From Helianthus annuus (Eukaryota > Streptophyta > Magnoliopsida > Asterales > Asteraceae), in NCBI RefSeq assembly GCF_002127325.2, contig NC_035449.2:141566820-141630819 (forward strand): a stretch of 64,000 bases of DNA, given 5' to 3'. The translations under genes and the position numbers were made by a program. Each line of letters begins with the position of its first letter. Positions within the stretch are counted from its first letter, which is position 1. The notes below the pieces were generated by a model. That model was not told the DNA's origin. It saw only the letters and a program-made list of their open reading frames with translations, and did not search any database. Positions 24,376-64,000 of this stretch are shown in pieces.

Positions 24376-24378
24376 ATC

Positions 24379-35597: not shown

Positions 35598-35639
35598 CCC
35601 AAGATTTGACAAGCACCAGATGTGCTTTTTCTGTCAATC
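35467..35639. other. Rearranged junction with duplicated and inverted filler DNA
   Basis: A 41-bp segment (35467-35507) is repeated exactly at 35560-35600. It is followed without a gap by 42 bp (35598-35639) that are the exact reverse complement of the RNase H region of the Ty1 element at 41212-41253. That is followed by the Ty1 LTR, missing its first 37 bp. Short overlaps (CCC and TCAATC) mark the joints. This is the pattern left by template-switching repair of a double-strand break. Confidence 0.85.
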
Positions 35640-36388
35640 AACTGGATCTCTGAAGAAGATAACAATCCTGAAGAACACAGCAAGATGAAGAAAAACAGTT
35701 GGGACAACCGAAAAGCAAAGTATCTACTACAAAGAATCTCAAGTTGATAAAAGAGTTGATTTGGATTATCAGAGAAGGACGTTTCTGATGGATCTGATGA
35801 TATTTCTGATGAAATATCATCAGTTTCTGACAAATTCTGATCATCAATTTTTCTGATGATTTGTTCACCAGAATTTCTGATGAAGTGGCTTATCAGAAAT
35901 TCTAATGACAGACCCACTTGTCTAAAATCACAACTCTATCCTGTCACCCATGACCGAAGCATGACATTATTGGTTTTCATGATTACAAATGCAACTTGAA
36001 CGATGGATTCAATGAATATGTCAAATTGCTACTTTATGCAGGACTTATTGCATGAATAAACAATTGTTTATTCATGCCCACAACTGTCTATAAATAGAAG
36101 GCTCGAGAGGCAGAAGATACTTGAGTTTGAAGCCTAGCATTCACATACACACACTCAAACTCCAACTGCTCTTCTCACCCACAGAAATCAAGATTCATTT
36201 GTATTAGATAATAATCTTACAATCACCTTGTTAAACTAATTTGTTTTAAAGTGATATAAACTTGATAATTCTGTAGGTCTTGTTTCTTGAAAGTCTGATT
36301 TCCATTTCCGCACATCTTTTTCACATATACTGAAATCACCTGCCATATTACGTAAAAATAAGTTGTTAAGGCCATACTGGGTCCAACA
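35634..36388 (+). repeat. 5' LTR of the Ty1 element (first 37 bp lost)
   Basis: 755 bp matching the solo LTR at 32706-33460 and ending GGGTCCAACA. It includes TATAAATA at 36089-36096. The upstream part has a dense set of TTTCTGATGA/TCATCAGAAA words. Confidence 0.95.
36089..36096 (+). promoter_or_regulatory. TATA box of the Ty1 LTR
   Basis: TATAAATA, the same as at 33161-33168 in the solo LTR, about 300 bp before the LTR end and about 200 bp after the TCTGATGA cluster. Confidence 0.65.
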
Positions 36389-42334: not shown

Positions 42335-43150
42335 ATGAACCACCCAAGATCAATGGAATCCAACCAATTTCCTCTCATACTCCACGAACATCATAATCTC
42401 AGACTAAGATCTAACCTAGAAGGACCTGCATGGGAGGACTGCAGGTTTGTGTACAATATGATCATGAGAAGTCCCTTGGGCTTTGCCATGTTTACACATG
42501 TCACCATATATCCAGAACTTCTTTAGGAGTTCTGGTGGAATGCTCAAGTTGTTATGAGTGGCACTTCTATGTGGATAAGAAGTGAGGTTATGGGGGTAGA
42601 GATCACCCTAAAAGAGGAAACACTCAGAGATGTCCTCAAATTGGGTGACTGTCGAAGGATCACTATATTGGAAAAGGCAGAAGTGCAAAGGACCTTGACT
42701 GAAATGGGCTACAATTCAAGCAATGTGTCAAGGCAAATTTGCAAATCTGGGTTCATACCACCTTTTCAATATTTGGTAACACAGCTGAGTGTCTGCTTTT
42801 CGAAAAAGACAGGACACTTTAATGAGCTGTCTTACAGGATGATGGAAGTGGCGCATGCTATTGTACAGGAAAAACCTTACAATTATGCTAAGTTTCTCAT
42901 GAGAGACTTAGAAGGAAACGTCCATGACCGTAATCCTTTTCTGATCTACCCTCGTTTCGTAACCAAAGTAATCACAAGTCAACTTGACTTTGGTGGTGTG
43001 AGAAGTTGTTATACAAGAGCTGAACTAGCACTTCAAGAAAACTTAAGAGTTGCTTCCCTGGTTCCATCAACCTTTCATACAGGGAGATTAACCAGTCTCT
43101 GGTTATACGTGAAGTGCATGTATAACGTGTTGGATGAAGATGATGAGTAG
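42335..43150 (+). pseudogene. Env-like/extra ORF 1 of the SIRE-type element
   Basis: One frame from ATG 42335 to 43150, interrupted only by a TAG at 42524-42526 ('YPELL-EFWWNAQVV'). Without the stop it would be about 270 codons. Features seen are 'VEITLKEETLRDVLKLGD' and 'NAKFLMRDLEG'-like hydrophobic patches ('YNYAKFLMRDLEGN', 'PFLIYPRFVTKVI'). Plant SIRE-type elements often carry extra frames of this kind after pol; the function is unknown. No signal peptide or clear membrane helix is visible. Confidence 0.6.
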
Positions 43151-44098
43151 TTAGGTCTATCTGTGTTTGTTTTAGCTTGTTAAGTTTTTTTTGTATGTTC
43201 TAACCCACTTTTGTTCAGTAATATATTCAGGTTTTCTTAATTAAATAATTAGTTAAATATGTCAATAGGTCAAGGGGGAACTAAGAAATCTTGTCTGATG
43301 ATAACAAGGAAAATCTGGTAAGAATCAAATGAAATCTGATAGGAAATGATAAATCATCAGAATCTGATAAAATTTATCAGAAATTTCATTAACACATCAG
43401 AAATCTGATGTAAAGAAACAAAAAAAAACTGAATTATTTTTAGATATGTTTCTTTCAATTTTTTTTCTGAGGACTGGAACAAGCCATATGAAAGAGACCT
43501 CCTAATAACATCAGAACAAAAATGCAGAGTTCACAAGATCAAGGTAAGAAATTTTATCAAACTCCACTCATTCCCTCTCATCTTAGAAAAAAATTATACA
43601 TATATTTTGATTCAAACTCCTATAAATGAATCAAATATCTTCTGATGATATATATGGGAAAATTCAACTCTTTGAGAAATATGTAGATCTTTCAATATAT
43701 ATATCATCAAAAGAACAAAATGGGAAAGCACTCAATTGAAGAAAAGGCTTTTGATTGGACCTATTCTGAAATCAAAAAGGGTCCCACCTAAAAAGGTGCA
43801 AGTTGGATACTAGTGTTTATCTTTTAAAAATCGTTGGAATCTCTAATTGTCTTAAATGAGATATACATTAAATTAGAGATAACCCAAGGGTTTTTCAAAA
43901 ACGGTTGTGTCTTTAAAAGATTAAAACATCATTAAGGTGTCATAAACACCTTGAATACAAACAACCCACGAAAAACACTCAAAAATCTCTGTCTCAGCTC
44001 ACTATAAATATCCCCTCCAACAACAGAGACGTCCATCTTCAACCTCAATTCTCGAAACCCTAAAAACCCTTTTTCAAAAGCAAAAACCCAAATCCTTA
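43151..44098 (+). other. Noncoding spacer with TCTGATGA clusters
   Basis: No gene is supported. 43290-43415 holds many TCTGATGA, ATCAGAAATTT and AATCTGAT words that form imperfect palindromes, like those in the LTR. The region just before 44099 has CTATAAATATCCC (about 44003), a possible promoter for the next frame. Confidence 0.5.
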
Positions 44099-46799
44099 AT
44101 GGCTGCCTCAAACAACAGTCCACCTCCAGCTGAACACACTATTCCCCTAATCACTGAAGCTGAATATCTTCCTTTGAAGAACAACAATGAAGCAATGAAC
44201 ACCAATATCGAACAATATGATGTGAAGTGTCAAATTCTCATTGAGTTTCTGATCAGAAGCCCAATAGCTCATGCTCTTACAAAGACCAGAGAGGTACCAA
44301 AAAGATTGATACAACAGGTTGTACATACTCTCGAAGCTCATAGAACAGATATGGAGCTCACAACACTTGTATGGGAAGATATCTTCATCAGAATCACACC
44401 AGAGAAAATAAGGGAATGTTTGGAACTACCCTTAAATCAAGAGTATGAAGGTGCACCTCCAAAAGAAGACATGTTTGAACAACTTGATGCTGTAATGGGA
44501 TGCAAGGCGAAGATTTCAAAAATCAACTAGTTCAAGAGGAACAAGCTACCTGCCTTCTGGCAAGTATTGATGGAAATATTGAATAAATGTTTATCATCCA
44601 AGATCGGAGGTACGGATCAGATAAATACGAATATTCTAACAATCATGTTCAGCCTTATAACTGGGTTGAATATTGATTTTGGAACAGAAATATTTAATCT
44701 GATCAAAAGATCAATTCTGACCAAAACTGGAAAGATAGATTCACATCTACCATTTCCCATATTTTTATCCATCATAATTATTTCTGATGCTTTTTCTGAA
44801 AGAAATCTGCAAACTCCAAAATCAAAATATATGTGGAGATCAGAAATTATGAGACCCTGAAGTGCTGCAGGGTCTTGGAAGTCAGACTTTGATGTACCTG
44901 TTCTACCAGAAAATATGATGGATCTTGTATCAGAAAGTTCATCATACAGAGCAGAATACATGAGAATGTTAAGTAGGCAAGCAGAAACAAAAGAAGGATT
45001 TGAAAAGATATCGCCCATGGAGCATGATGCAGAAGAATCAACAACACCAAGAATAGAGCAGCAGGATGAATCTGATCCACATCTTGCTGATCAAGATGTG
45101 CTTATGACTCTTGCAACAGAAGAACATCATGCTGAAGGCTCACATATTGGAAAAACAAGTGCTACAAAATCTAAACTCAATTTATTTTATACTTCTGGAA
45201 GTGATTCTGATGAATCGATTCAACCAAGATATGAAATATTACAAAGAAGCACTGTTTTTACAAAACAAAATGTGAGTGAAACAAAAGACCCATTTTCTGA
45301 GTCAAACTCTGAGGAGGAAAATGTGGTAACAACAGGTGGAGATCAGTTCACTGATCAAGGAAACCTGGATGAGAAAAATAAAAGTTTCTCAACAACTCAT
45401 GGAGAACTTGAAAAGGTTCAAGGATGTGAGGAAAACCAGGACTTGAATTTGTTTCAAATTTCTGGTGAGGAAACAGAGAATTTGGATACTTTGAATCCTC
45501 TTAGCCTCAGAACATCAGAAAATGTGTTTTCTGGTGGTGTTAGAAGGGAAACATCGGTTGTTTCTCCTATTTCCCAAGAACAACCATCTATGTCTCCAAA
45601 ACAACTTCATAAAGAACTTAAAGATGAAGCAGCTGCTGAGAAAACAGTCATGAACGAAAAACTTGATCTGATACTGGAAGAAATCAGAAATAAAAAATCA
45701 GAAGTCAAAGCTCTATCAGAGACTGTCAAAGCTGTGCAGAAACAAACTGAAGAAAATAGTGCAGCTCTCAAAGAAATACAAAAGTCATCAGAAAACAAAG
45801 GAACTTCTTCAGAAATGGAAAAGGCTCTTAAAGAACTGCGTGATATCAAGAAAAAGATGACAGAAATTGCAACTGCTGGAGAAAGTTCAAGTTCAGGAAG
45901 GCTTCTTGAAGAAATACAACTGCTCAGAGCCAACAGCAGCAGTCTAACTGAGGCTATTGAAAAGTTGGTACAGGAATTAAGTGAACAAAGAAGCAAAGAA
46001 AATTTAGGAGTTTCAGAAAATAAAGAAGCAAGAAGAAACAAACAATCAATCTCTTACTAACATTCATTTGCTAGTTAAAAGATTGCAATACAATGTTGCC
46101 ACACTGGAAAAAGTTGATCTTCATAAACTAAAGACTCCAATTCCACAAGAAAGCCAAGCAAAAGAGTCAGAAAGTCCCCAACATCACCCAGAAACCATCC
46201 AACGAGAACAAATAAAGCAAACAGAAGCTGTAACAGTTCAAAAAGAAAAACAGACCATGGGTCCACCACCAGATAAACAAAACTTACCCATGGGTCCTCC
46301 ACCAAAAATATCAAAGCCAGATACTTCAAGTTTCCAACATAAAGAATACACTTCAGCTCATCCATCAACTACAACCATCACTGGAGAAACAGAATTTAGT
46401 ATAAGGATGGACACAAAAGAGAAGCGGAGAATGGAACATGAAGTGACCTCTTCAAAAAGGCCAAGAAAAATAATGAGAGAAGACTCAGAAGGCAAGATCA
46501 AAGAATCAGAAGTGCTGGAAGGTGATCTACACACAATCATGTATCCAGAAGAACATCTGAAGCACTACTATTGGAAAGGTTCAGTAGACAACCCAACAAG
46601 GCCACTCTCACCAATGAGTGAAGGTATTTATGAAGAAAGAAAGAATGGCAGCCGGGTGATATTGCACAACAAATTGACCAATCCAATAGTATCAATTGAA
46701 AGAGTTGATACTTTGACTACTGGAGGAGGCTTACTAGGGATTGAAAGTCAAAAGAAGTACACCATAGTCAGAAAAGACAAAGATGTTCAAAAAGTTACT
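44099..46799 (+). pseudogene. Env-like/extra ORF 2 of the SIRE-type element, cut by insertion
   Basis: A long frame starting at ATG 44099 ('MAASNNSPPPAEHTIPLI') is broken by stops at 44528-44530 and 44858-44860 and by a frameshift near 46045-46060. It is then cut at 46800 by the LTR of the second Ty3 element. The middle (about 45600-46000) is a probable coiled coil rich in Glu/Lys/Leu ('LDLILEEIRNKKSEVKALSE'). The later part has the short repeat 'MGPPPDKQN/MGPPPKIS'. The final codons of the open frame after 46800 belong to the LTR, not to this gene. No known enzyme domain was recognised. Confidence 0.65.
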
Positions 46800-49060
46800 T
46801 GTGACAACTCGAATTTCCACGATTTCTATCTTCGCATTTATTACACGTTAATTGTCTGGATTGTTTGTTTACATGACTAGTGGTTTCGCAACGGAACACG
46901 TTTGTAATATGTTAAACCATATTGTGAATGATATGTTACATTTGATGTGCATGAGTGTGTTGCTGATATAAGATTGTAGGTTGGTTAGCATATGTGTTGT
47001 GTTGTTTGAGTTATATAATGGATCACATGCCAAACATCCCTCACGAAAATACCCATGGCCGAAAACACAATATGTGTTTTCGTCCACTTGCTTGCCAACG
47101 AAAACCAAATGGGCTTTGGCCCAGTAGCGATTAGATATAAGGTCTTGTTCTTAACCTTTACGCGAATTCGGTAACTGGCAACCCTAAATCATCTCTCGCA
47201 TTCTCTCTCTCTCGCTACCCTTGAACCTGACGGCAAACTTGTTGTTGACTCGACTCATCGCGGTTAGTGTTAACCTTTAACCGATTGTTTGATTTAAAGC
47301 AATTGTATGAACGATTTCTTGTTTATTATCATAAATATGATTGTGTTGTGAACATAAGACTGGATTATCGTTATGTGTGTGTATATATGTTCACCAACTG
47401 TTATATATATTGGATGGTATGCTCGACCGTGTGTGCCTGTCATCGATGATCTGAATGATATTAACGTGATATGTTGTTGTGAACTGATTAACTTAGGTGA
47501 TTGCATGAATAGATCAGATTGATCAAAAGGCTGTTATTATCGATGTAAATGTTAGGCGGTGTTAGGGTTGTTGTAGTTTGTAACTGTTGTTTGATGATGA
47601 TGCCATGACCACGAAGACACAGACATCACGAAAACACAAGGGTCAGACGAAATCCCCTTTGTGTTTTCGTCACACCTCAAATTCAACGAAAACCTTAAGG
47701 ATTTCGCCAAACAATTTTCATTCAAAAGGGTTTTCGGCCCAATTAGTTTTCGCCAAAAGAGTTTCCGGCCCAACTGTGATTTCGGCCCAAGTTTGGTTTT
47801 CGGCCCAAGCTTGGTTTTCGCCCATTAAGTGATTTCGTTTGGTGATCTGTAACTGTGTATCTCGTATGTTGATATTGTTACTTGGTTAGCTTTGTTAGGT
47901 TTAACTCTGTTAGTTGATAAATCATGTTAAATTGATTAACGTAGTTAAGTTAACCTTATTAACCAAGTTATATGTGTTAACTATGTTGAGTAACTAATGC
48001 TATTAGTTTGATTAATTAACACTGTTTGTTTGTTAAAACCGTAAAGGGTTAACACTGTTAAGTTAAGCTCGCAACCCCGTTAAATATGTAACTCAGTTAA
48101 AGGTGTTGATTCCGTTAATCTTGTTGACCTTGTTAAGTGTTGATATTGTTAAACCTGTTAATTGATTTGACTGCTTACGTGACATACGATATTAAATACT
48201 AAGCACCTTATGACATAGATTTGCCTGTGAAACATTTTGAGTTCGAAACTGATTATACATACGTGCGTACTATAGGTCGTGATTGATTAACTGTGCGCGT
48301 GTGTATTTCTTTAGCATACCGAGCAAACCAAGGTGAGTTCACACAGCCAAGGCATGGGTTCCCGGGTGGGAATGGGATTTTGTTGAATTATTGTACATAC
48401 TCAGCTGATAGAACCTAACGAATAAGCTACGACTAGACTAGTGACACTTACTAAACTGATCTTCGCACACCTGCCAAGGGTTGGCCGCGATATTATGACT
48501 GACTTCGCACACCTGCCTTTGGAAGGCCGCGAACTAAACTTACTAACATCTTCGCACACCTGCCTGGTAGGCCGCGATACAAATAAACCTAGTCTAGAAT
48601 ACTTGGGAGAAACGTCCCCTAACATCTTCGCATACCTGCCCGGGAGGCCGTGATGGAAATATAATACATGATATAAACGAACGAACATACTATTACTCAC
48701 ACTATACTATTACTGAACTGTTAACTGTGAACTCGCTCAACTAGTTGTTGACTCTCTGCTGCATGCCTTGCAGGACCTTAGGTACTTATGGAGCTTGCAC
48801 AAGGAGGAGCAGGTCGTTGTGGGATTCGGATCGTAGACATTATGTTAAACAATTGAACTTATAACTTTACTTTGGATTTTCATTATTATGCTTCCGCTAT
48901 TGATACTATGTTTGGTTTGGAACATCAATCGTATTGATTTGGGTTTTACAAACTATCTTATTTATATTATGCTATGTTCAATATGATTGATGGCTTGATC
49001 CTGGTCATGTCACGCCTCCAAGCGGTGGTACTCCGCGTGTGGATTTTTGGGGGTGTGACA
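46800..49060 (+). repeat. 5' LTR of the second Ty3 element (family C)
   Basis: TGTGACAACTCG ... GGGGGTGTGACA, 2261 bp. It contains the inverted repeat CGAAAACACA-ATA-TGTGTTTTCG (47060-47082), a weak TATA-like GATATAAG (about 47134), a second larger hairpin of the same motif (47628-47670), TTTCGGCCCAA repeats (47710-47825), and four CTTCGCACACCTGCC/GGCCGCGA units (48463-48655). Confidence 0.95.
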
Positions 49061-49063
49061 GAT

Positions 49064-49075
49064 TGGTATCAGAGC
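49064..49075 (+). promoter_or_regulatory. Primer-binding site of the second Ty3 element
   Basis: TGGTATCAGAGC three bases after the LTR. The same site recurs after every LTR-derived part of the tandem array (first at 56469-56480). Confidence 0.95.
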
Positions 49076-49382
49076 CATTGGTTATAGAGAACTTGGTTTT
49101 AATATGGGAAAACGTTTTATTAAAACCAGACTATAACCAGAACAGTGCTCTCAACGATCCACAACGACGCTTCGCTCCACGTGCAAGACTCGACATCCTA
49201 GGTAATAAGGTTTATGTTTATTACCTGCTTGCTAGAATTGCATAGAACTTTGCTCGTAGTATGCTTACCTTACTTTTGCTCACTACTTGTTACTGCCTAA
49301 GAACCTCTATGTGCTTACACTCTTCTGTCATCGCTCTATTCGCGAACCTCTCTAACTCATGTTGCATTTGCTATGAAGAATC

Positions 49383-49470
49383 ATGTCTGGACGAATTAAC
49401 ATGACTCAAGCCCAGCTAGAGGCTCTCGTTCAAGCTCAAGTTGCTGCGGCACTTGCAGCTACTCAAGCAG
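49383..49470 (+). CDS. Gag exon 1 of the second Ty3 element
   Basis: ATG at 49383 opens 29 codons ('MTQAQLEALVQAQVAAAL', an amphipathic helix) plus one base. They align with the N-terminal helix of Gag in the complete Ty3 element ('[18 protein letters not shown]'). The unspliced frame meets TAG at 49500-49502. Joining 49470 to 49561 restores the frame as Gly-Gln-His into Gag. The region is kept unchanged in every unit of the tandem array. Confidence 0.7.
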
Positions 49471-49560
49471 GTAGTATACCCTGCCGTATAGACACACACT
49501 AGGATCTTTAGATCCTACATTAACTCTCGTATTTAACCTTGTCCTATTCGTACACAATAG
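49471..49560 (+). other. Probable 90-bp intron in gag
   Basis: Starts CAG|GTAGTATACC and ends TACACAATAG|GTCAAC, standard GT-AG borders. It carries an in-frame stop, a T-rich part and a possible branch site (TTAAC, about 49519). Removing it joins the N-terminal helix to the rest of Gag in frame. The evidence is sequence only; no transcript was seen. Confidence 0.65.
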
Positions 49561-52500
49561 GTCAACACGTGCAGCAGCCTGTCTGCACTTTCAAGAACTT
49601 CATGGACTGTCGTCCAAGTACTTTCAGTGGCACCGAGGGGGCAGTGGGACTCCTCCATTGGTTTGAGAAGCTAGAGTCAGTGTTCGAAATGTGTGAATGC
49701 CCTGAGGCACGCAGGGTCAAGTATGCCACTGGCACGTTGGAAGGGATTGCGCTCACCTGGTGGAACGCGCAAGTACAGATCCTAGGGTTGGCAGCTGTTA
49801 ACGCCACACCTTGGGAGGATTTCAAGGAATTGATTAAACGTGAGTACTACACACGAGACGACATTCACAAGTTGGAGAATGAGCTATACCACCTGAAGAT
49901 GACGGGGTCAGAGATTGAGGCTTACACGAAACGGTCAAATGAACTGGCCATCTTATGTCCAACGATGGTGGACCCTCCAGTTAAGCGCATCGAGTTGTAT
50001 CTTAAGGGGCTTGCGCCAGAGATTCAGAGCCACGTGACGTCGGCTAACCTCAACAACATCCAAGACATTCAGCGTCTTGCTCACCGACTCACCGATCAGG
50101 CAGTGGATCAGAACAAGCTGCCAAAACGCATCAGTGCTACCACTACTGCCACTACTACTCCAGCTACTACTTCTGCCACACCCAGCGAGAACAAAAGAAA
50201 GTGGGATGGGGATTCCAGCAGGGGATCAGTATCTGTTCAGTCCCAAACACAGCAGCGTCGCACCAACGACTACCAAAGTCCGAATCAGCAATCATCAGGC
50301 AGTCAGGGGCAGAGTGGATATAGGGGAACTCACCCGTGGTGTAACAGGTGCAACAAACACCACAGTGGAAGGTGTCGCAGGGAACGTTGTCAAAGATGCC
50401 TCAAGCCGGGTCATGAGGCGAAGGATTGTAGAAGCTCACGGCCAGCAAATCAGAACCAGCAACTCCCACCGCCAACTCCACAGAACCAGCAGCAGCAGCC
50501 ACAGCGTGGAAACCGGGGATGTTTCCAGTGTGGGGCTGAAGGTCACTACAAACGTGATTGCCCTCAACTTAACCAGAACCAGAATCGCAACAACAACAAT
50601 CAGGGCAACGGGAACAATAACAACAACAACGGGGGAAACAACAACAACAATGGCAACGAAGCTCGGGGTCGTGCTTTTGTGCTAGGTCGGGGTGACGCAG
50701 TGAATGATCCCAATGTGGTTATGGGTAAGTTTCTTCTCGACGATATTTACGTTACTGTCTTATTTGATTCGGGTGCTGATACAAGTTATATGTCCTTGAA
50801 AATGAGTAAACTGTTAAAACGTACACCAACACCCCTAAACACTAAACATGTCGTAGAGTTAGCGAATGGTAAGAGCGTAGAAGCCGCACACGTAATCAAG
50901 GGTTGTAGCATCGTTTTAGCTGGTCAGACTTTCTCGATTGATCTTATACCCATAGTTTTGGGTAGTTTCGACGTTGTCATCGGTATGGATTGGTTGTCCC
51001 AACATCACGCAGAAATTTTATGCAAGGAAAAGATCATCCGTATTCCTCTCTCTAGTCAGGAACCTCTTGAAGTTCAAGGCGACAAGAGTGGTGCTGTGGT
51101 TGGCATCATCTCTTTCTTAAAGGCGCAGAAATGTTTACGAAAGGGGCACACTGCAATCCTGGCACTTGTCACTGACGCATCAGCAAAGGAAAAGAAGCTG
51201 GAGGATATTCCAGTTGTACGTGACTTTCCTCAGGTGTTTCCTGAAGATCTACCCGGTTTACCGCCTCATCGCCAAGTCGAATTCCAGATTGAGTTAGCTC
51301 CTGGAGCAGCACCAATAGCCCGCGCACCGTATCGTTTAGCTCCAACTGAACTGGAAGAACTTTCAAAGCAACTACAAGAGCTCTTGGATAAGGGCTTTAT
51401 TCGTCCAAGCTCTTCGCCTTGGGGAGCTCCAGTGTTATTTGTGAAGAAGAAAGACGGTACGTTCAGAATGTGCATCGACTACCGTGAACTAAACAAGGTG
51501 ACGGTGAAGAACCGTTATCCTCTTCCGCGTATAGACGACTTATTCGACCAGTTGCAGGGGTCGAGTTACTACTCCAAGATAGACTTGAGGTCGGGGTATC
51601 ATTAGCTGAGAGTCCGGGATGAGGACGTCTCAAAAACCGCTTTCAGAACTCGCTACGGTCACTACGAGTTTCTAGTCATGCCATTTGGGCTTACGAACGC
51701 GCCGGCAGTTTTCATGGATCTTATGAACAGGGTGTGCAAACCCTATCTAGACAAGTTCGTCATTGTCTTCATCGACGACATTCTGATCTACTCCAAGAGT
51801 CAGGAGGAACATGAGCAGCACTTACGTCTTATCTTGGAACTTCTTCGAAAGGAACAACTGTACGCAAAATTTTCAAAATGTGACTTCTGGCTTCGTGAAG
51901 TCCACTTTCTAGGCCACGTAGTGAACAAGGATGGGATCCATGTCGATCCATCCAAGGTGGATTCGATCAGAAACTGGCCTGCACCGCGAACACCAACGGA
52001 AATACGTCAATTCTTGGGTTTGGCGGGTTACTACAGACGGTTTATCAAAGACTTCTCCAAGATCGCACAGCCGCTTACACTACTGACACAGAAAGGTGTC
52101 ACGTACCGTTGGGGAGATTCCCAGGAAGCCGCTTTTCAGTACTTAAAGGATAGGCTTTGCAGCGCGCCTATTCTCTCATTGCCAGAGGGCACGGATGATT
52201 TTGTGGTCTATTGTGACGCGTCGATACAGGGACTTGGTTGTGTATTGATGCAGCGGGATAAAGTTATTGCCTACGCTTCGCGACAACTCAAGATTCACGA
52301 ACGAAACTACACGACGCACGATTTAGAGCTGGGAGCTGTTGTTTTCGCGCTTAAGATATGGCGACACTACCTGTACGGTACCAGGTGCACCATTTACACC
52401 GATCACAGGAGTCTCGAGCATATTCTTAAGCAAAAGGATTTGAACATGCGTCAACGAAGATGGGTTGAACTTCTGAACGATTACGAATGCGCCATCAAGT

Positions 52501-54064
52501 ACCATCCAGGCAAGGCCAATGTTGTGGCTGATGCTCTCAGTCGGAAAGACACTCTACCTAGACGTGTACGAGCCTTGCAGCTCACTATTCAGTCCGGTCT
52601 TCCTGCACAGATACGAACTGCTCAGATAGAAGCATTGAACCCCGAAAACGTCAAGGCTGAAGCCTTACGCGGCTCAAGGCAACGAATGGAACAAAAGGAA
52701 GATGGTGCATACTATGTAACGGGGCGTATTTGGGTCCCACTTTATGGCGGATTACGAGAACTTGTGATGGATGAAGCTCACAAGTCTCGCTACTCGGTAC
52801 ATCCAGGTTCGGATAAAATGTACCACGACATCAGAACTACATACTGGTGGCCAAGCATGAAAGCCCACATCGCTACTTACATCGGCAAGTGTTTGACTTG
52901 TGCAAAAGTCAAAGTGGAGTATCAGAAACCAGCGGGCCTACTTCAACAACCCAAGATACCGCAATGGAATGGGAAGAAATTTCCATGGATTTCGTTACAG
53001 GTCTACCCAGATCCCAGCGTGGGAATGATACCATATGGGTGATCGTGGATCGACTCACCAAGTCTGCACACTTCCTGGCTATAAAGGAAACGGATAAGTT
53101 CTCCACTCTCGCAGACGTTTATCTCAAAGAAGTTGTTTCGAGGCACGGGGTGCCCACCTCCATCATTTCAGATCGGGATGCACGATTCACGTCAGAGCTA
53201 TGGCAAGCGATGCACAAATCTTTTGGCTCACAGTTAGATATGAGCACAGCGTATCATCCTCAGACGGATGGACAGTCTGAGCGAACGATCCAAACTCTTG
53301 AAGACATGCTTCGGGCATGCGTTATTGATTTCGACAACGGCTGGGAAAAACATCTCCCTTTGGTGGAATTCTCATACAATAACAGCTATCACACCAGCAT
53401 TCAAGCCGCTCCATTCGAGGCATTGTACGGGCGTAAATGCCGGTCACCTCTCTGTTGGGCAGAGGTGGGGGATAGTCAGATTACGGGTCCAGAGATTATA
53501 GTGGACGCCACGGAAAAGATTGCACAAATACGACAACGCATGGCGGCAGCACGCGACCGTCAGAAAGCATACGCGGATAAGCGTAGGAAACCATTGGAAT
53601 TTCAGGTCGGGGACCGGGTTTTGCTTAAAGTCTCACTTTGGAAGGGTGTGGTTCGCTTTGGCAAACGGGGCAAACTAAATCCGCGATACGTCGGACCGTT
53701 CGAGATCATTGAGAAAATAGGCAAAGTGGCCTACAAGCTAAACCTACCAGCTGAACTCGGTGCAGTTCACAACGTATTCCACGTGTCGAATCTGAAGAAA
53801 TGTCTGTCAGATGAGACCCTCATAGTTCCTTTTAAGGAACTCACTATCGACGAGCGGTTGCAGTTCGTCGAGGAGCCAGTTGAAATCACGGACTGGGATG
53901 TTAAGGTCCTCAAAAACAAGAGAATCCCTCTTGTTCGAGTTCGTTGGAACTCCCGTCGTGGCCCAGAGTACACCTGGGAACGCGAAGACCAGATGACAGA
54001 AAAGTATCCCCAGTTATTCGAAACCAATACAACCACTGCTGAGGCTGAAGCTACTACTCCATAA
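49561..54064 (+). pseudogene. Gag-Pol of the second Ty3 element (stop and frameshift)
   Basis: One polyprotein like that of the complete Ty3 element. Gag continues ('[17 protein letters not shown]') with two CCHC knuckles (about 50387-50428 '[14 protein letters not shown]' and 50520-50561 '[14 protein letters not shown]') and an Asn-rich linker. Protease DSGA is near 50767. RT begins near 51280. A TAG at 51603-51605 replaces the Gln after 'LRSGYH'. The same frame goes on through FIDD (about 51769-51780), RNase H ('VVYCDAS', 'TDHRSLEHI') and the integrase zinc site. A one-base loss near 52965-52970 shifts the frame. The integrase core ('MDFVTG', 'SDRDARFTS', 'TDGQSERTI'), GPF segment and chromodomain-like tail are intact to the stop at 54062-54064. 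It needs another element's proteins to move. Confidence 0.9.
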
Positions 54065-54200
54065 TTTCGGGACGAAATTCCAAATCAACGGGGGGATGAT
54101 GTGACACCCCAGGAAAACCAGTGAACGATACAACTTACCTAGCTTCTTCAGTGAGTGCGTACCAAATTTCGGGACGAAATTTCTTCTAAGTTGGGGATAA
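54062..54200 (+). promoter_or_regulatory. Doubled palindrome and polypurine module before the 3' LTR
   Basis: Two successive copies of AATTTCGGGACGAAATT (about 54064-54080 and 54165-54181). The first is followed by CAACGGGGGGATGA and then TGTGACACCCCAGG, a complete polypurine tract plus LTR-like start. The second is followed by AAGTTGGGGATAATG directly before the real LTR at 54201. The first copy overlaps the pol stop codon. Confidence 0.7.
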
Positions 54201-56465
54201 TGTGACAACTCGAATTTCCACGATTTCTATCTTCGCATTTATTACACGTTAATTGTCTGGATTGTTTGTTTACATGACTAGTGGTTTCGCAACGGAACAC
54301 GTTTGTAATATGTTAAACCATATTGTGAATAATATGTTACATTTGATGTGCATGAGTGTGTTGCTGATATAAGATTGTAGGTTGGTTAGCATATGTGTTG
54401 TGTTGTTTGAGTTATATAATGGATCACATGCCAAACATCCCTCACGAAAATACCCATGGCCGAAAACACAATATGTGTTTTCGTCCACTTGCTTGCCAAC
54501 GAAAACCAAATGGGCTTTGGCCCAGTAGCGATTAGATATAAGGTCTTGTTCTTAACCTTTACGCGAATTCGATAACTGGCAACCCTAAATCATCTCTCGC
54601 ATTCTCTCTCTCTCGCTACCCTTGAACCTGACGGCAAACTTGTTGTTGACTCGACTCATCGCAGTTAGTGTTAACCTTTAACCGATTGTTTGATTTAAAG
54701 CAATTGTATGAACGATTTCTTGTTTATTATCATAACTATGATTGTGTTGTGAACATAAGACTGGATTATCGTTATGTGTGTGTATATATGTTCACCAACT
54801 GTTATATATATTGGATGGTATGCTCGACCGTGTATGCCTGTCATCGATGATCTGAATGATATTAACGTGATATGTTGTTGTGAACTGATTAACTTAGGTG
54901 ATTGCATGAATAGATCAGATTGATCAAAAGGCTGTTATTATCGATGTAAATGTTAGGCGGTGTTAGGGTTGTTGTAGTTTGTAACTGTTGTTTGATGATG
55001 ATGCCATGACCACGAAGACACAAACATCACGAAAACACAAGGGTCAGACGAAATCCCCTTTGTGTTTTCGTCACACCTCAAATTCAACGAAAACCTTAAG
55101 GATTTCACCAAACAGTTTTCATTCAAAAGGGTTTTCGGCCCAATTAGTTTTCGCCAAAAGAGTTTCCGGCCCAACTGTGATTTCGGCCCAAGTTTGGTTT
55201 TCGGCCCAAGCTTGGTTTTCGCCCATTAAGTGATTTCGTTTGGTGATCTGTAACTGTGTATCTCGTATGTTGATATTGTTACTTGGTTAGCTTTGTTAGG
55301 TTTAACTCTGTTAGTTGATAAATCATGTTAAATTGATTAACGTAGTTAAGTTAACCTTATTAACCAAGTTATATGTGTTAACTCTGTTGAGTAACTAATG
55401 CTATTAGTTTGATTAATTAACACTGTTTGTTTGTTAAAACCGTAAAGGGTTAACACTGTTAAGTTAAGCTCGCAACCCCGTTAAATATGTAACTCAGTTA
55501 AAGGTGTTGATTCCGTTAATCTTGTTGACCTTGTTAAGTGTTGATATTGTTAAACCTGTTAATTGATTTGACTGCTTACGTGACATACGATATTAAATAC
55601 TAAGCACCTTATGACATAGATTTGCCTGTGAAACATTTTGAGTTCGAAACTGATTATACATACGTGCGTACTATAGGTCGTGATTGATTAACTGTGCGCG
55701 TGTGTATTTCTTTAGCATACCGAGCAAACCAAGGTGAGTTCACACAGCCAAGGCATGGGTTCCCGGGTGGGAATGGGATTTTGTTGAATTATTGTACATA
55801 CTCAGCTGATAGAACCTAACGAATAAGCTACGACTAGACTAGTGACACTTACTGAACTGATCTTCGCACACCTGCCAAGGGTTGGCCGCGATATTATGAC
55901 TGACTTCGCACACCTGCCTTTGGAAGGCCGCAAACTAAACTTACTAACATCTTCGCACACCTGCCTGGTAGGCCGCGATACAAATAAACCTGGTCTAGAA
56001 TACTTGGGAGAAACGTCCCCTAACATCTTCGCATACCTGCCTGGGAGGCCGCGATGGAAATATAATACATGATATAAACGAACGAACGAACATACTATTA
56101 CTCACACTATACTATTACTGAACTGTTAACTGTGAACTCGCTCAACTAGTTGTTGACTCTCTGCTGCATGCCTTGCAGGACCTTAGGTACTTATGGAGCT
56201 TGCACAAGGAGGAGCAGGTCGTTGTGGGATTCGGATCGTAGACATTATGTTAAACAATTGAACTTATAACTTTACTTTGGATTTTCATTATTATGCTTCC
56301 GCTATTGATACTATGTTTGGTTTGGAACATCAATCGTATTGATTTGGGTTTTACAAACTATCTTATTTATATTATGCTATGTTCAATATGATTGATGGCT
56401 TGATCCTGGTCATGTCACGCCTCCAAGCGGTGGTACTCCACGTGTGGATTTTTGGGGGTGTGACA
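54201..56465 (+). repeat. 3' LTR of the second Ty3 element, start of the array
   Basis: 2265 bp, TGTGACAACTCG ... GGTGTGACA. It has three copies of the AACG unit near 56080 (the 5' LTR has two), a variant shared by every array unit. It is followed at once by the primer-binding site and leader, which is not normal for a 3' LTR. It therefore forms part of the first array unit from 54836. Confidence 0.9.
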
Positions 56466-56981
56466 GATTGGTATCAGAGCCATTGGTTATAGAGAACTTG
56501 GTTTTAATATGGGAAAACGTTTTATTAAAACCAGACTATAACCAGAACAGTGCTCTCAACGATCCACAACGACGCTTCGCTCCACGTGCAAGACTCGACA
56601 TCCTAGGTAATAAGGTTTATGTTTATTACCTGCTTGCTAGAATTGCATAGAACTTTGCTCGTAGTATGCTTACCTTACTTTTGCTCACTACTTGTTACTG
56701 CCTAAGAACCTCTATGTGCTTACACTCTTCTGTCATCGCTCTATTCGCGAACCTCTCTAACTCATGTTGCATTTGCTATGAAGAATCATGTCTGGACGAA
56801 TTAACATGACTCAAGCCCAGCTAGAGGCTCTCGTTCAAGCTCAAGTTGCTGCGGCACTTGCAGCTACTCAAGCAGGTAGTATACCCTGCCGTATAGACAC
56901 ACACTAGGATCTTTAGATCCTACATTAACTCTCGTATTTAACCTTGTCCTATTCGTACACAATAGGTCAACATGCGCAGCA
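54836..56981 (+). repeat. Array unit 1
   Basis: Includes the LTR-C part of the 3' LTR. It keeps GGCCCAAG (about 55184) and CATTCAAAAG (about 55119) like the 5' LTR, but its end has CAACATGCG (56969-56977). Confidence 0.9.
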
Positions 56982-57069
56982 GCCTGTCATCGATGATCTG
57001 AATGATATTAACGTGATATGTTGTTGTGAACTGATTAACTTAGGTGATTGCATGAATAGATCAGATTGA
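56788..57069 (+). CDS. Spliced chimeric Gag-LTR frame in each array unit (hypothetical)
   Basis: If the gag intron (56876-56965) is removed, exon 1 (56788-56875) joins exon 2 and reads through the unit joint into LTR sequence to a TGA at 57067-57069. This gives 63 codons: the Gag N-terminal helix followed by 'PVIDDLNDINVICCCELINL' and a short tail. Equal copies start at 58934, 61080 and 63226. Whether it is transcribed is unknown: the LTR part upstream of the TATA-like site is missing from units 2-5. It may be an accident of the joint, so confidence that it is a functional gene is low. Confidence 0.2.
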
Positions 57070-59127
57070 TCAAAAGGCTGTTATTATCGATGTAAATGTT
57101 AGGCGGTGTTAGGGTTGTTGTAGTTTGTAACTGTTGTTTGATGATGATGCCATGACCACGAAGACACAAACATCACGAAAACACAAGGGTCAGACGAAAT
57201 CCCCTTTGTGTTTTCGTCACACCTCAAATTCAACGAAAACCTTAAGGATTTCGCCAAACAGTTTTCGTTCAAAAGGGTTTTCGGCCCAATTAGTTTTCGC
57301 CAAAAGAGTTTCCGGCCCAACTGTGATTTCGGCTCAAGTTTGGTTTTCGGCCCAAGCTTGGTTTTCGCCCATTAAGTGATTTCGTTTGGTGATCTGTAAC
57401 TGTGTATCTCGTATGTTGATATTGTTACTTGGTTAGCTTTGTTAGGTTTAACTCTGTTAGTTGATAAATCATGTTAAATTGATTAACGTAGTTAAGTTAA
57501 CCTTATTAACCAAGTTATATGTGTTAACTCTGTTGAGTAACTAATGCTATTAGTTTGATTAATTAACACTGTTTGTTTGTTAAAACCGTAAAGGGTTAAC
57601 ACTGTTAAGTTAAGCTCGCAACCCCGTTAAATATGTAACTCAGTTAAAGGTGTTGATTCCGTTAATCTTGTTGACCTTGTTAAGTGTTGATATTGTTAAA
57701 CCTGTTAATTGATTTGACTGCTTACGTGACATACGATATTAAATACTAAGCACCTTATGACATAGATTTGCCTGTGAAACATTTTGAGTTCGAAACTGAT
57801 TATACATACGTGCGTACTATAGGTCGTGATTGATTAACTGTGCGCGTGTGTATTTCTTTAGCATACCGAGCAAACCAAGGTGAGTTCACACAGCCAAGGC
57901 ATGGGTTCCCGGGTGGGAATGGGATTTTGTTGAATTATTGTACATACTCAGCTGATAGAACCTAACGAATAAGCTACGACTAGACTAGTGACACTTACTG
58001 AACTGATCTTCGCACACCTGCCAAGGGTTGGCCGCGATATTATGACTGACTTCGCACACCTGCCTTTGGAAGGCCGCGAACTAAACTTACTAACATCTTC
58101 GCACACCTGCCTGGTAGGCCGCGATACAAATAAACCTAGTCTAGAATACTTGGGAGAAACGTCCCCTAACATCTTCGCATACCTGCCTGGGAGGCCGCGA
58201 TGGAAATATAATACATGATATAAACGAACGAACGAACATACTATTACTCACACTATACTATTACTGAACTGTTAACTGTGAACTCGCTCAACTAGTTGTT
58301 GACTCTCTGCTGCATGCCTTGCAGGACCTTAGGTACTTATGGAGCTTGCACAAGGAGGAGCAGGTCGTTGTGGGATTCGGATCGTAGACATTATGTTAAA
58401 CAATTGAACTTATAACTTTACTTTGGATTTTCATTATTATGCTTCCGCTATTGATACTATGTTTGGTTTGGAACATCAATCGTATTGATTTGGGTTTTAC
58501 AAACTATCTTATTTATATTATGCTATGTTCAATATGATTGATGGCTTGATCCTGGTCATGTCACGCCTCCAAGCGTTGGTACTCCGCGTGTGGATTTTTG
58601 GGGGTGTGACAGATTGGTATCAGAGCCATTGGTTATAGAGAACTTGGTTTTAATATGGGAAAACGTTTTATTAAAACCAGACTATAACCAGAACAATGCT
58701 CTCAACGATCCACAACGACGCTTCGTTCCACGTGCAAGACTCGACATCCTAGGTAATAAGGTTTATGTTTATTACCTGCTTGCTAGAATTGCATAGAACT
58801 TTGCTCGTAGTATGCTTACCTTACTTTTGCTCACTACTTGTTACTGCCTAAGAACCTCTATGTGCTTACACTCTTCTGTCATCGCTCTATTCGCGAACCT
58901 CTCTAACTCATGTTGCATTTGCTATGAAGAATCATGTCTGGACGAATTAACATGACTCAAGCCCAGCTAGAGGCTCTCGTTCAAGCTCAAGTTGCTGCGG
59001 CACTTGCAGCTACTCAAGCAGGTAGTATACCCTGCCGTATAGACACACACTAGGATCTTTAGATCCTACATTAACTCTCGTATTTAACCTTGTCCTATTC
59101 GTACACAATAGGTCAACATGCGCAGCA
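56982..59127 (+). repeat. Array unit 2
   Basis: Shares GGCTCAAG and CGTTCAAAAG with units 3-5. It has private changes AAGCGTTGGTAC (about 58571), AACAATGCTC (about 58690) and CTTCGTTCC (about 58721). The end has CAACATGCG. Confidence 0.9.
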
Positions 59128-61273
59128 GCCTGTCATCGATGATCTGAATGATATTAACGTGATATGTTGTTGTGAACTGATTAACTTAGGTGATTGCATG
59201 AATAGATCAGATTGATCAAAAGGCTGTTATTATCGATGTAAATGTTAGGCGGTGTTAGGGTTGTTGTAGTTTGTAACTGTTGTTTGATGATGATGCCATG
59301 ACCACGAAGACACAAACATCACGAAAACACAAGGGTCAGACGAAATCCCCTTTGTGTTTTCGTCACACCTCAAATTCAACGAAAACCTTAAGGATTTCGC
59401 CAAACAGTTTTCGTTCAAAAGGGTTTTCGGCCCAATTAGTTTTCGCCAAAAGAGTTTCCGGCCCAACTGTGATTTCGGCTCAAGTTTGGTTTTCGGCCCA
59501 AGCTTGGTTTTCGCCCATTAAGTGATTTCGTTTGGTGATCTGTAACTGTGTATCTCGTATGTTGATATTGTTACTTGGTTAGCTTTGTTAGGTTTAACTC
59601 TGTTAGTTGATAAATCATGTTAAATTGATTAACGTAGTTAAGTTAACCTTATTAACCAAGTTATATGTGTTAACTCTGTTGAGTAACTAATGCTATTAGT
59701 TTGATTAATTAACACTGTTTGTTTGTTAAAACCGTAAAGGGTTAACACTGTTAAGTTAAGCTCGCAACCCCGTTAAATATGTAACTCAGTTAAAGGTGTT
59801 GATTCCGTTAATCTTGTTGACCTTGTTAAGTGTTGATATTGTTAAACCTGTTAATTGATTTGACTGCTTACGTGACATACGATATTAAATACTAAGCACC
59901 TTATGACATAGATTTGCCTGTGAAACATTTTGAGTTCGAAACTGATTATACATACGTGCGTACTATAGGTCGTGATTGATTAACTGTGCGCGTGTGTATT
60001 TCTTTAGCATACCGAGCAAACCAAGGTGAGTTCACACAGCCAAGGCATGGGTTCCCGGGTGGGAATGGGATTTTGTTGAATTATTGTACATACTCAGCTG
60101 ATAGAACCTAACGAATAAGCTACGACTAGACTAGTGACACTTACTGAACTGATCTTCGCACACCTGCCAAGGGTTGGCCGCGATATTATGACTGACTTCG
60201 CACACCTGCCTTTGGAAGGCCGCGAACTAAACTTACTAACATCTTCGCACACCTGCCTGGTAGGCCGCGATACAAATAAACCTAGTCTAGAATACTTGGG
60301 AGAAACGTCCCCTAACATCTTCGCATACCTGCCTGGGAGGCCGCGATGGAAATATAATACATGATATAAACGAACGAACGAACATACTATTACTCACACT
60401 ATACTATTACTGAACTGTTAACTGTGAACTCGCTCAACTAGTTGTTGACTCTCTGCTGCATGCCTTGCAGGACCTTAGGTACTTATGGAGCTTGCACAAG
60501 GAGGAGCAGGTCGTTGTGGGATTCGGATCGTAGACATTATGTTAAACAATTGAACTTATAACTTTACTTTGGATTTTCATTATTATGCTTCCGCTATTGA
60601 TACTATGTTTGGTTTGGAACATCAATCGTATTGATTTGGGTTTTACAAACTATCTTATTTATATTATGCTATGTTCAATATGATTGATGGCTTGATCCTG
60701 GTCATGTCACGCCTCCAAGCGGTGGTACTCCGCGTGTGGATTTTTGGGGGTGTGACAGATTGGTATCAGAGCCATTGGTTATAGAGAACTTGGTTTTAAT
60801 ATGGGAAAACGTTTTATTAAAACCAGACTATAACCAGAACAGTGCTCTCAACGATCCACAACGACGCTTCGCTCCACGTGCAAGACTCGACATCCTAGGT
60901 AATAAGGTTTATGTTTATTACCTGCTTGCTAGAATTGCATAGAACTTTGCTCGTAGTATGCTTACCTTACTTTTGCTCACTACTTGTTACTGCCTAAGAA
61001 CCTCTATGTGCTTACACTCTTCTGTCATCGCTCTATTCGCGAACCTCTCTAACTCATGTTGCATTTGCTATGAAGAATCATGTCTGGACGAATTAACATG
61101 ACTCAAGCCCAGCTAGAGGCTCTCGTTCAAGCTCAAGTTGCTGCGGCACTTGCAGCTACTCAAGCAGGTAGTATACCCTGCCGTATAGACACACACTAGG
61201 ATCTTTAGATCCTACATTAACTCTCGTATTTAACCTTGTCCTATTCGTACACAATAGGTCAACACGCGCAGCA
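59128..61273 (+). repeat. Array unit 3
   Basis: Same length as the other units. It lacks the private changes of unit 2. Its end has CAACACGCG, closer to the gag source (CAACACGTG) than the ends of units 1 and 2. Confidence 0.9.
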
Positions 61274-63419
61274 GCCTGTCATCGATGATCTGAATGATAT
61301 TAACGTGATATGTTGTTGTGAACTGATTAACTTAGGTGATTGCATGAATAGATCAGATTGATCAAAAGGCTGTTATTATCGATGTAAATGTTAGGCGGTG
61401 TTAGGGTTGTTGTAGTTTGTAACTGTTGTTTGATGATGATGCCATGACCACGAAGACACAAACATCACGAAAACACAAGGGTCAGACGAAATCCCCTTTG
61501 TGTTTTCGTCACACCTCAAATTCAACGAAAACCTTAAGGATTTCGCCAAACAGTTTTCGTTCAAAAGGGTTTTCGGCCCAATTAGTTTTCGCCAAAAGAG
61601 TTTCCGGCCCAACTGTGATTTCGGCTCAAGTTTGGTTTTCGGCCCAAGCTTGGTTTTCGCCCATTAAGTGATTTCGTTTGGTGATCTGTAACTGTGTATC
61701 TCGTATGTTGATATTGTTACTTGGTTAGCTTTGTTAGGTTTAACTCTGTTAGTTGATAAATCATGTTAAATTGATTAACGTAGTTAAGTTAACCTTATTA
61801 ACCAAGTTATATGTGTTAACTCTGTTGAGTAACTAATGCTATTAGTTTGATTAATTAACACTGTTTGTTTGTTAAAACCGTAAAGGGTTAACACTGTTAA
61901 GTTAAGCTCGCAACCCCGTTAAATATGTAACTCAGTTAAAGGTGTTGATTCCGTTAATCTTGTTGACCTTGTTAAGTGTTGATATTGTTAAACCTGTTAA
62001 TTGATTTGACTGCTTACGTGACATACGATATTAAATACTAAGCACCTTATGACATAGATTTGCCTGTGAAACATTTTGAGTTCGAAACTGATTATACATA
62101 CGTGCGTACTATAGGTCGTGATTGATTAACTGTGCGCGTGTGTATTTCTTTAGCATACCGAGCAAACCAAGGTGAGTTCACACAGCCAAGGCATGGGTTC
62201 CCGGGTGGGAATGGGATTTTGTTGAATTATTGTACATACTCAGCTGATAGAACCTAACGAATAAGCTACGACTAGACTAGTGACACTTACTGAACTGATC
62301 TTCGCACACCTGCCAAGGGTTGGCCGCGATATTATGACCGACTTCGCACACCTGCCTTTGGAAGGCCGCGAACTAAACTTACTAACATCTTCGCACACCT
62401 GCCTGGTAGGCCGCGATACAAATAAACCTAGTCTAGAATACTTGGGAGAAACGTCCCCTAACATCTTCGCATACCTGCCTGGGAGGCCGCGATGGAAATA
62501 TAATACATGATATAAACGAACGAACGAACATACTATTACTCACACTATACTATTACTGAACTGTTAACTGTGAACTCGCTCAACTAGTTGTTGACTCTCT
62601 GCTGCATGCCTTGCAGGACCTTAGGTACTTATGGAGCTTGCACAAGGAGGAGCAGGTCGTTGTGGGATTCGGATCGTAGACATTATGTTAAACAATTGAA
62701 CTTATAACTTTACTTTGGATTTTCATTATTATGCTTCCGCTATTGATACTATGTTTGGTTTGGAACATCAATCGTATTGATTTGGGTTTTACAAACTATC
62801 TTATTTATATTATGCTATGTTCAATATGATTGATGGCTTGATCCTGGTCATGTCACGCCTCCAAGCGGTGGTACTCCGCGTGTGGATTTTTGGGGGTGTG
62901 ACAGATTGGTATCAGAGCCATTGGTTATAGAGAACTTGGTTTTAATATGGGAAAACGTTTTATTAAAACCAGACTATAACCAGAACAGTGCTCTCAACGA
63001 TCCACAACGACGCTTCGCTCCACGTGCAAGACTCGACATCCTAGGTAATAAGGTTTATGTTTATTACCTGCTTGCTAGAATTGCATAGAACTTTGCTCGT
63101 AGTATGCTTACCTTACTTTTGCTCACTACTTGTTACTGCCTAAGAACCTCTATGTGCTTACACTCTTCTGTCATCGCTCTATTCGCGAACCTCTCTAACT
63201 CATGTTGCATTTGCTATGAAGAATCATGTCTGGACGAATTAACATGACTCAAGCCCAGCTAGAGGCTCTCGTTCAAGCTCAAGTTGCTGCGGCACTTGCA
63301 GCTACTCAAGCAGGTAGTATACCCTGCCGTATAGACACACACTAGGATCTTTAGATCCTACATTAACTCTCGTATTTAACCTTGTCCTATTCGTACACAA
63401 TAGGTCAACACGCGCAGCA
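61274..63419 (+). repeat. Array unit 4
   Basis: Same length. One private change seen (ATGACCGACTT, about 62335). The end has CAACACGCG. Confidence 0.9.
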
Positions 63420-64000
63420 GCCTGTCATCGATGATCTGAATGATATTAACGTGATATGTTGTTGTGAACTGATTAACTTAGGTGATTGCATGAATAGATC
63501 AGATTGATCAAAAGGCTGTTATTATCGATGTAAATGTTAGGCGGTGTTAGGGTTGTTGTAGTTTGTAACTGTTGTTTGATGATGATGCCATGACCACGAA
63601 GACACAAACATCACGAAAACACAAGGGTCAGACGAAATCCCCTTTGTGTTTTCGTCACACCTCAAATTCAACGAAAACCTTAAGGATTTCGCCAAACAGT
63701 TTTCGTTCAAAAGGGTTTTCGGCCCAATTAGTTTTCGCCAAAAGAGTTTCCGGCCCAACTGTGATTTCGGCTCAAGTTTGGTTTTCGGCCCAAGCTTGGT
63801 TTTCGCCCATTAAGTGATTTCGTTTGGTGATCTGTAACTGTGTATCTCGTATGTTGATATTGTTACTTGGTTAGCTTTGTTAGGTTTAACTCTGTTAGTT
63901 GATAAATCATGTTAAATTGATTAACGTAGTTAAGTTAACCTTATTAACCAAGTTATATGTGTTAACTCTGTTGAGTAACTAATGTTATTAGTTTGATTAA
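63420..64000 (+). repeat. Array unit 5 (cut by the window edge)
   Basis: The first 581 bp of a further unit, with one private change near 63983 (AATGTTATTAG). The array continues outside the window. Confidence 0.9.

What the first reader, a model, noticed from the sequence alone, without database searches (positions are those of the whole stretch)
54836..64000. Young satellite-like array born from a Ty3 LTR plus leader and gag start
Five units repeat with an exact period of 2146 bp (54836, 56982, 59128, 61274, 63420) and run off the window. Each unit is the distal LTR, primer-binding site, leader, gag exon 1, intron and about 20 bp of exon 2 of the element at 46800-56465. The joint lies at a 7-bp microhomology (GCCTGTC) between gag (49580) and LTR (54836). 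Retrotransposon-derived satellites are known in plants (for example in potato and pea), but usually as old, diverged arrays. Here the parent element, the breakpoint homology and the first unit are all visible side by side, so the birth event can be read. Single-base differences between units argue against simple assembly duplication.
Basis: partly seen in the sequence, partly recalled or inferred. Interest (0 to 1): 0.9.

Follow-up and report, generated by a model that had tools for sequence, protein, structure and literature searches.

The report
Tandem array grown from retrotransposon LTR
In a sunflower-like plant genome, part of a jumping gene (the end of its terminal repeat, its leader and the first bit of its first gene) is repeated head-to-tail at least five times right beside the parent element, an unusually readable example of a known route by which satellite DNA can be born.

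Summary
Four complete 2146-bp units and 581 bp of a fifth lie head to tail at 54836-64000 and run off the window. Each is the distal 1630 bp of a 2.26-kb LTR plus primer-binding site, leader, gag exon 1, intron and about 20 bp of exon 2 of the adjacent Ty3 element (46800-56465). The four joints are identical and sit on a 7-bp match, GCCTGTC (about 4 in 10,000 random breakpoint pairs match as well). Neighbouring units differ by 9, 4, 1 and 1 substitutions and by no indel, so they look like separately mutated copies.

Best explanation: one microhomology-mediated joint placed gag next to LTR, and unequal exchange between the LTR-sized direct repeats multiplied the unit. This anatomy and model are known from maize CRM1TR/CRM4TR (PMC3648361), where no short repeats allowing a single-step joint were found; here one exists. 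A Tekay-derived, GAG-bearing 3.1-kb centromeric repeat is reported in Solanum (PMC13232507). The instance appears new, the kind is not. Array length, copy number, far boundary and chromosomal place could not be tested (own-genome search unanswered nine times); 'satellite' is unproven.

The parts
46795..46799 (+). TTACT, 5' flank of the element; presumed left target-site duplication (right copy not in the window)
   Evidence: sequence directly before the LTR start TGTGACAACTCG at 46800
46800..49060 (+). 5' LTR of the Ty3 element (2261 bp)
   Evidence: 15 substitutions and one 4-bp indel against the 3' LTR; ends TGTGACA before the PBS
49064..49076 (+). primer-binding site TGGTATCAGAGCC (initiator-Met type, recalled)
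   Evidence: sequence read
49383..49470 (+). gag exon 1 of the parent (MSGRINMTQAQLEALVQAQVAAALAATQA...)
   Evidence: annotated relatives join such a stretch to exon 2
49471..49560 (+). gag intron (GT...AG)
   Evidence: inferred from relatives' annotated proteins, no transcript tested
49577..49583 (+). GCCTGTC, gag side of the joint
49561..54064 (+). gag exon 2 to integrase region of the parent, reading frame broken at about 51605 and 53042
   Evidence: Ty3_capsid, protease, RT, RNase H, integrase, in Ty3 order over three frames (the rve hit, 32.3 bits, is just under its cut-off of 32.6)
54201..56465 (+). 3' LTR of the parent (2265 bp); its distal 1630 bp is the LTR part of unit 1; followed by PBS and leader, not by target DNA
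54836..54842 (+). GCCTGTC, LTR side of the joint (same 7 bp in the 5' LTR at 47435-47441)
54836..56981 (+). unit 1
56982..59127 (+). unit 2
59128..61273 (+). unit 3
61274..63419 (+). unit 4
63420..64000 (+). unit 5, first 581 bp, cut by the window end
46068..46799 (+). target: reading frame of an older repeat (downstream of a Ty1/copia pol) interrupted by the insertion
   Evidence: Helianthus relatives P0121 and P0122 continue past the break; their continuation has no significant match in the window

Best explanation
A Ty3 element (chromovirus-like, probably Tekay/Del type; lineage recalled) inserted into an older repeat. SHOWN: its 3' LTR is followed by primer-binding site, leader and the start of gag, which joins back into the LTR 635 bp from its start at a 7-bp microhomology, and this LTR-leader-gag unit repeats at least five times. 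INFERRED: a break or replication error was healed by pairing two GCCTGTC copies, most likely as a deletion from gag to the downstream LTR, giving an LTR-leader-gag~LTR structure in one illegitimate-recombination step. That structure holds LTR-sized near-identical direct repeats, so unequal sister or homologue exchange, or gene conversion, between them added units and homogenised the inner ones; exchange between LTRs of an intact and a rearranged copy put the whole element in front. The array is a by-product of DNA repair with no coding or transposition function of its own. The stated confidence covers 'microhomology joint, then growth by exchange between LTR repeats'; the first rival shares the growth step and differs only in the founding step, so the two overlap.
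For: Exact period and composition of the units. Joint identical in 4 of 4, 7-bp microhomology, chance about 0.0004 for random breakpoints. Divergence between neighbours falls from the edge inward: U1-U2 9, U2-U3 4, U3-U4 1, as expected if inner units are exchanged and the edge unit is not. Units 2 to 4 (and U5 at the one site it holds) share the parent 5' LTR state at the four sites where U1 alone differs (55107, 55932, 55992, 56440), so U1 probably changed after the array formed. The LTR 3' end pattern occurs 5 times in the window and runs into the PBS 5 of 5 times, never into target DNA; the interrupted reading frame's other half has no significant match in the window while the first half is found at once (1e-60), as expected if element and array fill one insertion. 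Units 2 onward lack the first 635 bp of the LTR with its integration end, so they are not integrase products (sequence). Same model proposed for CRM1TR/CRM4TR (PMC3648361).
Against: The far end of the array is not in the window, so the one-insertion claim rests on absence. The order of steps is not fixed: a backward jump of 2146 bp inside the 5' part of an element (tandem duplication, or a circle) makes the same joint. Unequal exchange and gene conversion cannot be told apart with five units. The edge-to-centre gradient rests on 14 differences among four whole units, and is not smooth seen from U1 (U1-U2 9, U1-U3 7, U1-U4 8), because U2 carries changes of its own. No outgroup was available, so most changes are unpolarised. 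The window's genome could not be searched (9 calls unanswered).
Confidence: 0.7

Rival explanations
1. Tandem duplication first: replication or repair slipped from gag (49577) back to the LTR (47435) inside the 5' end of a second, tandemly arranged copy of the element, so the array lies inside that copy, which continues into the rest of gag-pol beyond the window. Growth by exchange would follow as in the best explanation, so this overlaps with it.
For: The 5' LTR carries the same GCCTGTC, and a 2146-bp backward jump gives the unit in one step; 7 bp or more is as rare among random 5'-end breakpoints (0.0004 of 1,000,000 draws). Plant LTR elements sharing an internal LTR in tandem are reported as frequent (PMC11899658).
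Against: Needs a second internal region that is not seen in the window. Nothing in the window decides against it.
Confidence: 0.35
2. Circle route: a 2146-bp extrachromosomal circle closed at the microhomology, was copied by rolling circle, and the concatemer recombined into the 3' LTR.
For: Would give near-identical units at once; listed as a possible contributor for CRM1TR (PMC3648361).
Against: Units show graded divergence (9, 4, 1) and are not all equally alike, though later mutation and exchange could do this; no circle data.
Confidence: 0.15
3. Assembly artefact: a single unit or a short array was falsely expanded by the assembler.
For: Long near-identical repeats are hard to assemble; reads were not available.
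Against: Each of the five copies differs from every other over the stretch both hold; the variable sites of parent and units are 17 of 19 transitions (11 of the 12 that vary among the units), with a CpG excess (9 of 17 against 19% expected, p=0.0016), like methylated plant DNA and unlike the indel errors recalled for long reads; no indels between units. The gag/LTR joint itself is not explained by duplicating or collapsing a normal element.
Confidence: 0.05
4. The unit is a transposing non-autonomous element (TRIM- or TR-GAG-like) whose tandem form was inserted as such.
For: TRIM elements form tandems, perhaps during replication (PMC7215508 abstract; PMC11899658 Discussion).
Against: Units 2 to 5 lack the first 635 bp of the LTR, including the terminal TG needed for integration; reverse transcription would copy a truncated U3 to both ends (established retroelement biology, not tested).
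Confidence: 0.05

Closest known systems
CRM1TR and CRM4TR of maize (Sharma et al. 2013, PMC3648361; abstract, outline and sections 5 and 12 read)
   Same: Units made of LTR plus adjoining UTR of a Ty3 chromovirus; UTR~LTR joint; model of an LTR-UTR~LTR founder amplified by exchange between LTRs
   Different: There CRM1TR monomers average 696 and 819 nt at two loci, amplification began at least about 4 (CRM1TR) and 1 (CRM4TR) My ago, and no short direct repeats for a single-step joint were found; here a 2146-bp unit with gag exon 1 and intron, a 7-bp repeat at the joint, and a full parent element attached
Centromere 10 array of Solanum verrucosum (PMC13232507; passages seen)
   Same: Tandem repeat of kilobase units, described as Tekay-derived and containing the GAG domain
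   Different: 3.1-kb unit, one array described as highly repetitive in a centromere of about 1.0 Mb; here only about 9 kb seen, position unknown
Sobo satellite of wild potato (paper not held; seen as described in PMC3648361 and PMC9659126)
   Same: Long unit (4.7 kb) sharing sequence with LTRs of a Ty3 element, recently amplified
   Different: Unit also resembles satellite and other genomic DNA; about 360 kb array
Tandem LTR retrotransposons sharing LTRs (Morales-Diaz et al. 2025, PMC11899658; outline, passages and Discussion read) and Cassandra arrays (PMC7215508; abstract and outline seen)
   Same: Neighbouring repeats share LTRs; unit number varies among accessions there and may here
   Different: Those are described as alternating LTRs and internal regions; here LTR and internal region are both cut and rejoined
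Ogre 3'UTR-derived satellites of Lathyrus (PMC7004042; passages seen)
   Same: Satellites grown from a retrotransposon part
   Different: Those start from short tandem repeats already present in the 3' UTR

Membership tests
CRM1TR-type LTR-UTR tandem repeat | Unit spans the LTR/PBS/leader junction of one parent element | tested here: met
CRM1TR-type LTR-UTR tandem repeat | Internal region~LTR joint repeated head to tail | tested here: met
   4 of 4 joints identical
CRM1TR-type LTR-UTR tandem repeat | Parent element identifiable | tested here: met
   element 46800-56465 directly upstream, its 5' copy of the unit stretch 99.3% identical to unit 1
Satellite DNA | Head-to-tail, nearly identical units | tested here: met
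Satellite DNA | Long arrays and high genome copy number | tested here: inconclusive
   only about 9 kb in the window; own-genome search unanswered
Satellite DNA | Heterochromatic or centromeric position | not testable with these tools
   no chromosomal coordinates, FISH or ChIP
Ty3 retrotransposon | LTRs, PBS, gag, then PR-RT-RH-INT order | tested here: met
   RVP_2, RVT_1, RNase H and integrase models in that order across three reading frames (rve just under its cut-off)
Tekay/Del chromovirus lineage | Chromodomain after integrase and RT phylogeny in that lineage | tested here: inconclusive
   SH3_Tf2-1 found after integrase, no chromodomain model at E<=0.001; no RT tree made; the lineage name is recalled
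Tandem LTR retrotransposon from a single insertion | Target-site duplication at both outer ends | tested here: inconclusive
   TTACT on the left; right end lies beyond the window

The most novel reading that the evidence does not exclude
The window holds a nascent satellite caught inside one retrotransposon insertion: parent element, founding one-step 7-bp joint, diverged edge unit and homogenised inner units in order, with the far side ending in TTACT and the rest of the interrupted frame. If so it would be a case in which the single-step joint that was looked for and not found in maize CRM1TR/CRM4TR is seen directly.
Probability: 0.5. Interest if true: 0.55.

Novelty: new member of a known kind. 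Interest (0 to 1): 0.4.

Why it matters
How satellites start is hard to see because old arrays have lost their parents. Here a parent, the joint and a gradient of unit divergence stand side by side, so the deletion-then-exchange model of Sharma et al. can be tested at one locus, for example by comparing unit number and joint among sunflower accessions. It is a good teaching case, not a new class of structure.

Tried and rejected
Own-genome search for further copies of the unit: asked nine times in the same form, each time 'machine busy'; no answer. One exact-pattern scan of viral contigs for the PBS/leader found nothing, as expected for a plant repeat; it says nothing about plants. The prokaryote genome collection was not scanned because it is not expected to hold the host. 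Assembly artefact considered and judged unlikely from the unit-specific variants. Transposition of the unit in its present form rejected because the LTR 5' end is missing. A dated age was not pressed: with the rice rate of 1.3e-8 (recalled) the LTRs give about 0.25 My and U3-U4 about 0.02 My, but exchange resets such clocks. Paper searches that ran; I saw titles and the openings of abstracts of the papers listed, none of which mentions this array, but the lists were capped, the host assembly's own papers were not identified, and the sunflower repeat papers listed were not opened.
Full report
WHAT IS THERE. The region 54836-64000 repeats with an exact period of 2146 bp: four complete units and 581 bp of a fifth. 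A repeat search of 44000-64000, a direct comparison at offset 2146 and BLAST of the unit against the window agree. Outside the array the only other near-identical copy in the window is the 5' end of the adjacent element (47435-49576, 99.3%); the remaining BLAST hits are a 49-bp match at 24342-24389 (minus strand) and weak similarity among short repeats inside the LTR.

THE PARENT. A Ty3 element lies directly upstream: 5' LTR 46800-49060, 3' LTR 54201-56465, PBS TGGTATCAGAGCC, gag with a short exon 1 and a GT-AG intron, then protease, RT, RNase H and integrase in Ty3 order. Its reading frame is broken at about 51605 and 53042. The LTRs differ by 15 substitutions and one 4-bp indel. The frame 49539-51605 found 1611 proteins, 120 of them listed; the best is 88% identical over 98% of the query, and the first 35 of the 120 listed all carry a Helianthus name. 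The host is therefore most likely a sunflower or near relative; the species is not known to me. Relatives' annotated proteins run from an exon-1-like start straight into exon 2, which supports the intron.

THE UNIT AND THE JOINT. Each unit is LTR from base 636 on, PBS, leader, gag exon 1, intron and 16-23 bp of exon 2 (the ambiguity is the microhomology). The gag side (49577-49583) and the LTR side (54836-54842; also 47435-47441) share GCCTGTC and no further base on either side. Among 2,000,000 random breakpoint pairs between the internal region and the 3' LTR, 0.04% share 7 bp or more; for pairs at the 5' end the figure is 0.04% of 1,000,000. The joint occurs four times, identical over the 42 bp tested. 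Unit 1 has no joint on its left: it is the end of the complete 3' LTR.

DIFFERENCES AMONG COPIES. Over the parent stretch and five units there are 19 substitution sites and the 4-bp indel that separates the parent 5' copy from all units that hold the site. Neighbours differ by 9 (U1-U2), 4 (U2-U3), 1 (U3-U4) and 1 in 581 bp (U4-U5); no two units are identical over the whole stretch both hold; U1-U3 is 7 and U1-U4 is 8, since U2 has changes of its own. U1 alone differs at four sites where the parent 5' LTR agrees with units 2-4 (U5 holds one of the four and agrees too). Units 2-5 share two states (at 55121 and 55188) that neither U1 nor the parent has. 17 of 19 sites are transitions (11 of the 12 that vary among the units); 9 of the 17 fall at CpG against 19% of G+C bases (one-sided binomial p=0.0016, test chosen after seeing the list). 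This resembles the decay of methylated, silenced plant DNA more than read errors. Seven bases before the joint the parent gag codon is GTG (Val) and in all four whole units GCG (Ala). Of the 120 gag-pol relatives listed, 26 gave the pattern searched; 23 of these fit the simple form and 22 of 23 have Ala (1 Asn); the other 3 begin AGG and were not scored. So the parent most likely changed there after the array's copy was made.

SURROUNDINGS. The element interrupts a reading frame (46068-46799) downstream of a Ty1/copia pol. Of five relatives found, all from Helianthus, P0122 aligns to the last residue before the break and P0121 to six residues before it, and both continue beyond; the other three do not reach the break in the alignment. 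The continuations have no significant match in the window (best E 1.1), while the part before the break is found at 1e-60. The LTR 3' end pattern occurs five times in the window and runs into the PBS each time. Element and array therefore most likely fill a single insertion whose right end is beyond base 64000; this is inference from absence.

HOW IT MOST LIKELY AROSE. Sharma et al. (PMC3648361) proposed for maize CRM1TR/CRM4TR an LTR-UTR~LTR founder made by illegitimate recombination and grown by exchange or gene conversion between the LTRs, but they detected no short direct repeats allowing a single-step joint and assumed sequential steps. The present joint has such a repeat. My inference on why the same region is involved: the LTRs are the only long direct repeats in an element, so any founder that keeps two LTR parts grows with a unit of LTR plus whatever lies between. 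The rivals (tandem duplication inside a second copy; circle) give the same joint and differ mainly at the far end. Units 2 onward lack the LTR's integration end, so they cannot be retrotransposition products in their present form.

WHAT IS KNOWN. Besides CRM1TR/CRM4TR: potato centromere repeats and Sobo (as described in PMC3648361 and PMC9659126; the Sobo paper itself is not held), a Tekay-derived GAG-bearing 3.1-kb centromeric array in Solanum verrucosum (PMC13232507, passages), Cassandra tandems (PMC7215508, abstract), shared-LTR tandems reported as frequent in rice and other plants (PMC11899658), Ogre-derived satellites (PMC7004042, passages). The sunflower centromere repeats in the passages seen are a LINE and a 187-bp repeat (PMC4628103), unlike this. 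The finding is a clean member of a known kind.

LIMITS. Nothing beyond the window was available: the own-genome search did not complete (nine calls). Array length, copy number, polymorphism and position are open, and 'satellite' should be read as 'tandem array'.

Noticed in passing
window 32669-33460: Solo LTR of the Ty1/copia family whose truncated 5' LTR (35634-36388) precedes the copia gag, with a perfect 5-bp target-site duplication GCCAC on both sides (32664-32668, 33461-33465).
   Followed up: partly
window 15794-27182: Very young complete Ty3 element on the minus strand: LTRs of about 2.8 kb differ by one substitution and one 1-bp indel, 1543-aa uninterrupted gag-pol frame, target-site duplication AGGTG.
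   Followed up: partly
window 42554-46799: Three frames downstream of the copia pol with no Pfam match; the last one (46068-46799) has five relatives, all from Helianthus, two of them annotated as rickA-like. Possibly the extra region of a SIRE/Maximus-type copia (recalled, not tested).
   Followed up: partly
window 55847-56062 and the same place in the other copies: Short diverged internal repeats (CTTCGCACACCTGCC...GGCCGCGAT) inside the LTR.
   Followed up: no
window 31806-31921: Two copies of a 58-bp tandem repeat, 98% matches.
   Followed up: no
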